IMG/VR virus record: IMGVR_UViG_3300025928_000005
Span: 47,342-111,341 of that record
DNA from: a virus
DNA length: 64,000 bases
Reading direction: 5' to 3' (one strand)
Shown in pieces: positions 19,107 to 19,289 of the stretch (position 1 is its first letter; every line of letters begins with the position of its first letter). The position numbers and the translations under genes were made by a program. Under the pieces are notes generated by a model. The model had not been told where the DNA came from. It worked only from the letters and a program-made list of their open reading frames with translations, and did not search any database.

Positions 19107-19205
19107 GTGAGCTGGACCGGGACGAGACCTGAGGTGACGGGCGGCGTCTGTTTGCAACCAATTTGCGAAGTAGCCGCTCGTCCGCGCACCGTCCCGGCCG
19201 CTCAC
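19107..19205 (-). ncRNA. Y-RNA-like RNA E (minimal form)
   Basis: The closing stem GTGAGC..CCGGGACG pairs with CGTCCCGG..GCTCAC. Inside it lie GGTGC (19186-19190) on the 5' side and GGTCTCG (19123-19129) on the 3' side, the motifs shared by all five. A second stem (GACGAGCGGC/GCCGCCCGTC, one mismatch) leads to TACTTC and a small hairpin GCAA-ATTGG-TTGC. It has no tRNA-like module. It ends 4 nt before tRNA-Met. Confidence 0.65.
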
Positions 19206-19210
19206 GAGAT

Positions 19211-19289
19211 CACCACGAGACCTGGGACGACCTGGGGCGACTCTTCAAATTAGCAGTTTGATATAGCCCCTGGTCTTTGCACCGTGGCG
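19211..19289 (-). ncRNA. Y-RNA-like RNA D (minimal form)
   Basis: Closing stem CGCCACG/CGTGGTG, then GGTGC (19279-19283) opposite GGTCTCG (19216-19222), a second stem GACC-A-GGGGC / GCCCC-A-GGTC, and an apical hairpin TCAAA-CTGCTAA-TTTGA. At 79 nt it is the shortest of the set. The apical hairpin looks like an anticodon arm (GCU), but no T or D arm is present. Confidence 0.65.

What the first reader, a model, noticed from the sequence alone, without database searches (positions are those of the whole stretch)
19107..19289. Two minimal Y-like RNAs (D, E) without tRNA module
D and E keep the closing stem, GGTGC, GGTCTCG and the second stem but replace the module by a small hairpin. Having module-bearing and module-free forms side by side suggests a division of labour, such as gating Ro against tethering a partner.
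Basis: partly seen in the sequence, partly recalled or inferred. Interest (0 to 1): 0.72.

Follow-up and report, generated by a model that had tools for sequence, protein, structure and literature searches.

The report
Two module-free phage Y RNAs
Next to a phage gene for a Ro-type RNA-binding ring protein sit two short RNA genes that keep the presumed Ro-docking core of bacterial Y RNAs but lack most of the tRNA-like module; they are real and conserved, and the same pairing of long and short forms is common in actinobacteria and their phages, so they belong to a known kind of RNA with one unusual detail (a hairpin shaped like a tRNA anticodon arm).

Summary
On the minus strand, upstream of a Ro/TROVE gene, lie three Y RNAs with a tRNA-like module (A, B, C) and two without it (D 19290-19210, E 19199-19115). 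D and E recur in the same order in related contigs L003, L004, L005 and L007. Their stems show compensatory changes (10 of 18 pairs), and a covariance model built from them gives 122 matches in 93 actinobacterial and viral Ro loci, all upstream of Ro on its strand. Long and short forms stand side by side in at least 41 of 80 bacterial and 39 of 74 viral Ro loci, so this is a common layout of a known family (bacterial Y RNAs, as in Salmonella yrlB/yrlA), not a peculiarity of this phage. One correction: the small hairpin is not simply a substitute for the module. In D, and in a significant share of short forms, it is a canonical anticodon stem-loop, the arm that most long forms carry within a circularly permuted tRNA. 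The gate/tether division of labour fits the literature but is untested; Ro binding is inferred from position and shared core, not shown.

The parts
19210..19290 (-). Y RNA 'D', module-free, 81 nt
   Evidence: core GGUGC/GGUCUCG, two stems; homologues in L003, L004, L005, L007
19245..19261 (-). terminal hairpin of D, anticodon-arm-like: 5-bp stem UCAAA/UUUGA, 7-nt loop CUGCUAA
   Evidence: homologues AUCGA-CUCUUAA-UCGGU (L005) and AUCGA-CUGUUAA-UCGGU (L007)
19115..19199 (-). Y RNA 'E', module-free, 85 nt
19154..19166 (-). terminal hairpin of E, GCAA-AUUGG-UUGC (not anticodon-like)
   Evidence: conserved in L003-L005, replaced by another hairpin in L007
19104..19209 (-). E with outer extension of its closing stem, CGUGAGC/GCUCACG, possible processing stem
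   Evidence: fold z -3.86; the same outer stem is present in L003, L004, L007
19311..19455 (-). Y RNA 'C', module-bearing, with anticodon-arm-like hairpin CAACC-CUGAUUA-GGUUG
19556..19686 (-). Y RNA 'B', module-bearing
20313..20473 (-). Y RNA 'A', module-bearing; Rfam YrlA 37.8 bits over 20337-20452
17211..18917 (-). Ro/TROVE protein gene; likely start GTG at 18917 (homologues start at xAxFNK); longest ORF starts at 18959
   Evidence: Pfam TROVE 49.6 bits; PDB profile match to D. radiodurans Rsr 9e-21; fold match to Ro structures
19028..19102 (-). tRNA-Met(CAU) gene between E and Ro
   Evidence: ARAGORN and Rfam

Best explanation
D and E are two short, module-free Y RNAs encoded with a phage Ro protein. 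Each folds into a closing stem, an asymmetric internal loop made of the GGUGC and GGUCU strands, a second stem, and a terminal hairpin. The closing stem and loop, whose conserved letters are shared with the three long Y RNAs, most likely form the Ro-docking site, so D and E would compete with A, B and C for the same surface of the Ro ring. A long Y RNA on Ro presents a tRNA-like module to a partner (PNPase in known cases). A short one occupies and covers the ring without offering T, D or acceptor arms. Shown here: anatomy, conservation, covariation, linkage to Ro, and coexistence of both kinds across actinobacteria and phages. Inferred: transcription, Ro binding, competition and the gating effect. 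D keeps an anticodon-arm-like hairpin, probably what remains after loss of the rest of a permuted tRNA module.
For: Same order A-E before Ro in viral contigs L004 and L005; C-E in L003 (contig ends there); B-E in L007, with A of L007 recovered by a second scan. Covariation in D/E and in 122 wider relatives. The model from D/E hits only places upstream of Ro and on its strand in 690 kb searched on both strands, and finds equivalents in Gordonia phage Neville right before its Ro gene. TACTTC is concentrated in the 500 nt before Ro: 184 of 269 plus-strand occurrences in bacterial loci, against 2 on the minus strand of that interval. Both kinds side by side in 41 of 80 bacterial and 39 of 74 viral loci. 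Module-bearing RNAs match Rfam YrlA below its cut-off but with significant E-values: window A 2.9e-6, Neville 1.2e-6, Quantum 2.6e-6. The protein is Ro-like by profile and fold. In known cases Ro orthologues bind the lower stem of Y RNAs (PMC4726728) and Salmonella carries yrlB and yrlA next to rsr (PMC9879122).
Against: No expression or binding data. No sigma-70-type promoter or minus-strand terminator found near D/E, so they may be processed from a longer transcript. No PNPase or RtcB gene in the 111-kb contig; the partner would have to be the host's. D of this window has lost the UACUUC motif that its homologues keep. The D/E alignment comes from one phage lineage, with L004 and L005 nearly identical.
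Confidence: 0.75

Rival explanations
1. The short forms with anticodon-like hairpins act as decoys or sinks for enzymes that read anticodon arms (anticodon nucleases of host defence, or tRNA-modifying enzymes), held and protected by Ro.
For: The strict loop pattern CUNNNAA on a stem of at least 4 bp occurs in 21 of 119 short forms (0.3 expected) and 84 of 232 long forms (0.6 expected); without pre-selecting the loop sequence, U at position 33 in 39 of 50 and A/G at 37 in 40 of 50 seven-nt loops of short forms. Hughes, Wolin and colleagues' RNA-repair paper proposes that YrlA's tRNA-like domain may inhibit an anticodon nuclease (PMC7790460).
Against: E and most short forms lack a canonical anticodon loop; anticodon triplets vary, so there is no single nuclease target; no nuclease or ligase was identified here. 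YrlA fragments were not seen in Salmonella (PMC7790460).
Confidence: 0.12
2. D and E are decaying copies of long Y RNAs that lost the module and have no function of their own.
For: D's hairpin resembles the anticodon arm of a lost module; D of this window has lost UACUUC; copy numbers vary between loci.
Against: Core letters conserved and stems covarying across 122 RNAs; short forms found in about half or more of the loci surveyed; D and E both kept in all relatives with intact upstream DNA.
Confidence: 0.08
3. The hairpins are processing or leader elements of the tRNA operon (RNase III/E sites) that do not bind Ro.
For: They sit in a tRNA cluster, E has a long outer stem next to tRNA-Met, and no own promoter was found.
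Against: In most bacterial loci surveyed the same RNAs lie within about 600 nt before Ro; the core is shared with the module-bearing RNAs.
Confidence: 0.05

Closest known systems
Salmonella YrlB and YrlA with Rsr (rsr-yrlBA-rtcBA operon)
   Same: Two Y RNAs encoded beside a Ro orthologue, one of them (YrlA) with a tRNA-like domain
   Different: In Salmonella the RNAs follow rsr in an RNA-repair operon; here five RNAs precede Ro in a phage tRNA cluster with no RtcB in the contig; the sequence of YrlB was not compared here
Rfam RF02553 YrlA
   Same: Window A and relatives align over the whole model with T, D and acceptor arms
   Different: Score 37.8 against a cut-off of 69; D and E do not match; most actinobacterial modules add an anticodon arm that is not a separate hairpin in the Rfam consensus
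Y RNA of Deinococcus radiodurans with Rsr and PNPase (RYPER)
   Same: Stem-docked Y RNA on a Ro ring; gate and tether idea
   Different: There one RNA does both; PNPase contact not tested here
Y RNAs near Ro-like genes in phages (mycobacteriophages; Listeria phage CKA15; solved Ro60 of Thermus phage phiLo, PDB 9l5y)
   Same: Phage-encoded Ro, with reported or suspected Y RNAs nearby
   Different: For CKA15 the Y RNA identity is only proposed (PMC12282133); the window's phage lineage is distinct

Membership tests
bacterial Y RNA (D, E) | gene beside a Ro/TROVE gene, same strand | tested here: met
   122 of 122 model hits upstream of Ro on its strand
bacterial Y RNA (D, E) | 5' and 3' ends paired in a closing stem with a conserved core next to it | tested here: met
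bacterial Y RNA (D, E) | bound and stabilised by the Ro protein | not testable with these tools
   needs binding assay or pull-down
bacterial Y RNA (D, E) | expressed as a small stable RNA | not testable with these tools
   no transcript data for this phage
YrlA (RF02553), for D and E | tRNA-like module with T, D and acceptor arms | tested here: not met
   D and E lack these arms and have no Rfam match; A, B and C have them
YrlA (RF02553), for A | score above Rfam gathering cut-off | tested here: not met
   37.8 of 69 bits, E 2.9e-6
Ro60/TROVE protein | TROVE profile, vWA domain with metal site DxSxS, helical-repeat ring fold | tested here: met
   PF05731 49.6 bits, cut-off 23; D412, S414, S416 invariant; Foldseek best hits are Ro structures, E 5e-16 to 8e-10; model pLDDT 75
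RYPER (Ro-Y RNA-PNPase) | Y RNA links Ro to PNPase | not testable with these tools
   no PNPase gene in the contig; host PNPase possible

The most novel reading that the evidence does not exclude
Actinobacterial and phage Y RNAs come as a graded series made from one circularly permuted but otherwise complete tRNA: long forms hang a whole four-armed tRNA, anticodon arm included, on the Ro-docking core, and short forms such as D keep only the anticodon arm, so that Ro particles display free anticodon loops as baits or decoys for enzymes that cut or modify anticodon arms during infection.
Probability: 0.15. Interest if true: 0.75.

Novelty: new member of a known kind. Interest (0 to 1): 0.42.

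Why it matters
It gives a compact natural test set, five Y RNAs with one Ro in one phage, in which the role of the tRNA-like module can be separated from Ro docking. The survey shows that the short forms are a widespread class that no Rfam family picked up here, and that their hairpin often has the form of a tRNA anticodon arm, which links Ro particles to tRNA surveillance or anticodon-targeting enzymes in a testable way.

Tried and rejected
Chance hairpins: rejected by covariation and slid controls. Match to a curated RNA family: none for D or E. DNA similarity to known phages: the best matches cover only the tRNA-Met, no whole locus. Minimal forms as D-arm remnants (loop AAUUGG resembles a D loop in E, Neville, GiJojo, BRock): considered, but the anticodon-arm reading fits more loops and the position of the hairpin in long forms; for E it stays open. 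UUC/GAA mini-hairpin as a universal element: hairpins starting at UUC are only slightly above shuffles (228 against 197 expected in long forms, 113 against 83 in short), so not claimed. Phage-encoded PNPase or RtcB as partner: none in the contig; the RNA ligase search had no positive control and is not informative. The key papers on bacterial Y RNAs (Chen 2014, Wang 2018, Sim and Wolin 2018) are not held, so whether they describe anticodon arms or these short forms could not be checked.

Full report
Setting. The window is part of a 111-kb IMG/VR virus record. A Ro-like protein is encoded at 17211-18959 on the minus strand; homologues suggest that the true start is the GTG at 18917. It matches Pfam TROVE at 49.6 bits, D. 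radiodurans Rsr and vertebrate Ro60 by profile, and Ro structures, including Ro60 of Thermus phage phiLo, by predicted fold. Its closest cellular relatives are in Actinomycetes (49% identity to Actinomadura), closer than the annotated actinophage proteins at 37-41%. Five tRNA genes lie in the 1.3 kb upstream.

The observation. On the minus strand the same core occurs five times: closing stem, GGUGC, second stem, GGUCUCG, closing stem. A (20473-20313), B (19686-19556) and C (19455-19311) carry a tRNA-like module; D (19290-19210) and E (19199-19115) do not. Folding confirms the drawn structure for D and E. Shuffle z-scores are moderate (D -3.3, E -2.1), so the case rests on comparison.

Conservation. 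Relatives of the Ro gene in viral contigs carry the same array. L002 is identical, L004 and L005 have all five in order, L003 has C-E before the contig ends, and L007 has B-E by one scan and A by another. In an alignment of ten D/E sequences (nine distinct) 95.7% of cells pair, 10 of 18 pairs change on both sides, and sliding partners by one to three columns drops pairing to 53% or less.

Wider family. A covariance model from D and E finds A, B and C or their homologues too, and two RNAs directly upstream of Ro in Gordonia phage Neville (E 2e-4 and 0.008). In 93 bacterial and viral Ro loci (690 kb, both strands) it gives 122 matches up to E = 1, the best 1.3e-8; all lie on the strand of Ro and upstream of it. 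These loci were partly chosen because a motif scan had found short forms in them, so the number is not a prevalence, but strand and position are a fair control. In the model-fitted alignment of the 122 matches 17 of 18 pairs change on both sides; such an alignment leans towards the model, yet the slid controls stay at about 54% paired or below.

Motifs. The wider consensus is CCCGGUGCG(A/C)AG ... GG(U/A)UACUUC ... GAUCUCGGG. TACTTC on the plus strand falls in the last 500 nt before Ro in 184 of 269 cases for bacterial loci and 146 of 267 for viral loci, against 2 and 3 on the minus strand of the same interval. D of this window is an exception with UAUAUC.

Side by side. With a strict rule (GGUGCG-type start, UACUUC-type motif, closing stem of 6 bp or more) long and short forms occur together in 41 of 80 bacterial and 39 of 74 viral loci. 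The looser scan gave 54 short forms in bacterial loci against 4 to 6 per control region. The two sets overlap, since some viral records are prophage regions of the same genomes. Among isolated phages, VanLee, Quantum, JustBecause, Frankenweenie, Neville, GiJojo, Alone3, BRock and Atuin each show both kinds on inspection.

What the small hairpin is. In long forms the hairpin right after the UAC of UACUUC is often an anticodon stem-loop followed by a variable loop and the T arm. Joining the module end to end in silico, so that the permuted order is undone, lets ARAGORN read 181 of 232 long forms as tRNAs, against 17 of 232 when everything outside the T arm is shuffled; 44 are also called in native order. 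The best of about 40 cut points was taken in both real and control sets. Short forms keep this hairpin in part: the loop CUNNNAA on a stem of at least 4 bp occurs in 21 of 119, where 0.3 are expected, and seven-nt loops have U at position 33 in 39 of 50 and A or G at position 37 in 40 of 50. In D the hairpin is UCAAA-CUGCUAA-UUUGA; its homologues in L005 and L007 have a different stem with the loops CUCUUAA and CUGUUAA, so the form is kept while the letters change. A bacterial short form in L029 has the same 17-nt hairpin as D. E has GCAA-AUUGG-UUGC, which is not anticodon-like, and L007 has another hairpin there.

Mechanism. The part that does not change is the core, so the core is the likely Ro-docking site, in line with the lower-stem binding known for Rsr (PMC4726728). 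[quoted passage not shown] Short forms would then dock without recruiting that partner. This is inference; no binding, expression or competition was tested. The phage contig has no PNPase or RtcB, so any such partner would be the host's.

Known or new. Salmonella has YrlB and YrlA beside Rsr (PMC9879122), phage Y RNAs have been reported or proposed (PMC12282133, PMC7765460), and the gate and tether roles are published ideas. D and E are new members of this known kind. From memory, Chen et al. 2014 state that at least one Y RNA per species has a tRNA-like domain, which implies others without; that paper was not available. The held review describes YrlA's module as D, T and acceptor arms, so the anticodon arm in long forms and in D may be an undescribed variant, but this could not be checked against the primary papers.

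Noticed in passing
L017-L096 and L103-L176, upstream of Ro; window C 19311-19455: Most module-bearing Y RNAs of actinobacteria read as complete circularly permuted tRNAs with an anticodon arm (181 of 232 called tRNA by ARAGORN after undoing the permutation, control 17).
   Followed up: partly
window 19967-20046 (-): A permuted tRNA-like element (T arm, acceptor stem closed by UUCGA, D arm) between tRNA-Phe and tRNA-Asp with no clear Y core; weak partial matches to permuted tmRNA and YrlA.
   Followed up: partly
window 19776-19893 (-): A 10-bp stem GGUGAGAUCC/GGAUCUCACC around an RNA with a T-arm-like hairpin, directly before tRNA-Ile; possibly a degenerate tRNA or further Y-like RNA.
   Followed up: partly
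window 20118-20239 (-): Element with paired ends (GCACGCACGG/CCGUGUGC) and a perfect 10-bp hairpin AGCAUCGAAC/GUUCGAUGCU; no family found.
   Followed up: no
window 18945-19026 (-): Two strong hairpins between tRNA-Met and Ro: GGUCUCAACCG/CGGUUGAGACC and an 18-bp stem, possible attenuator or terminator before Ro.
   Followed up: no
L011 4475-4885 (Gordonia phage Neville gp88-gp90): Three small annotated ORFs overlap the Y RNA array and are probably not genes.
   Followed up: no
window 17214-18959 (-): The Ro protein is closer to chromosomal Ro of Actinomadura (49%) than to Ro of the annotated actinophages (37-41%).
   Followed up: no
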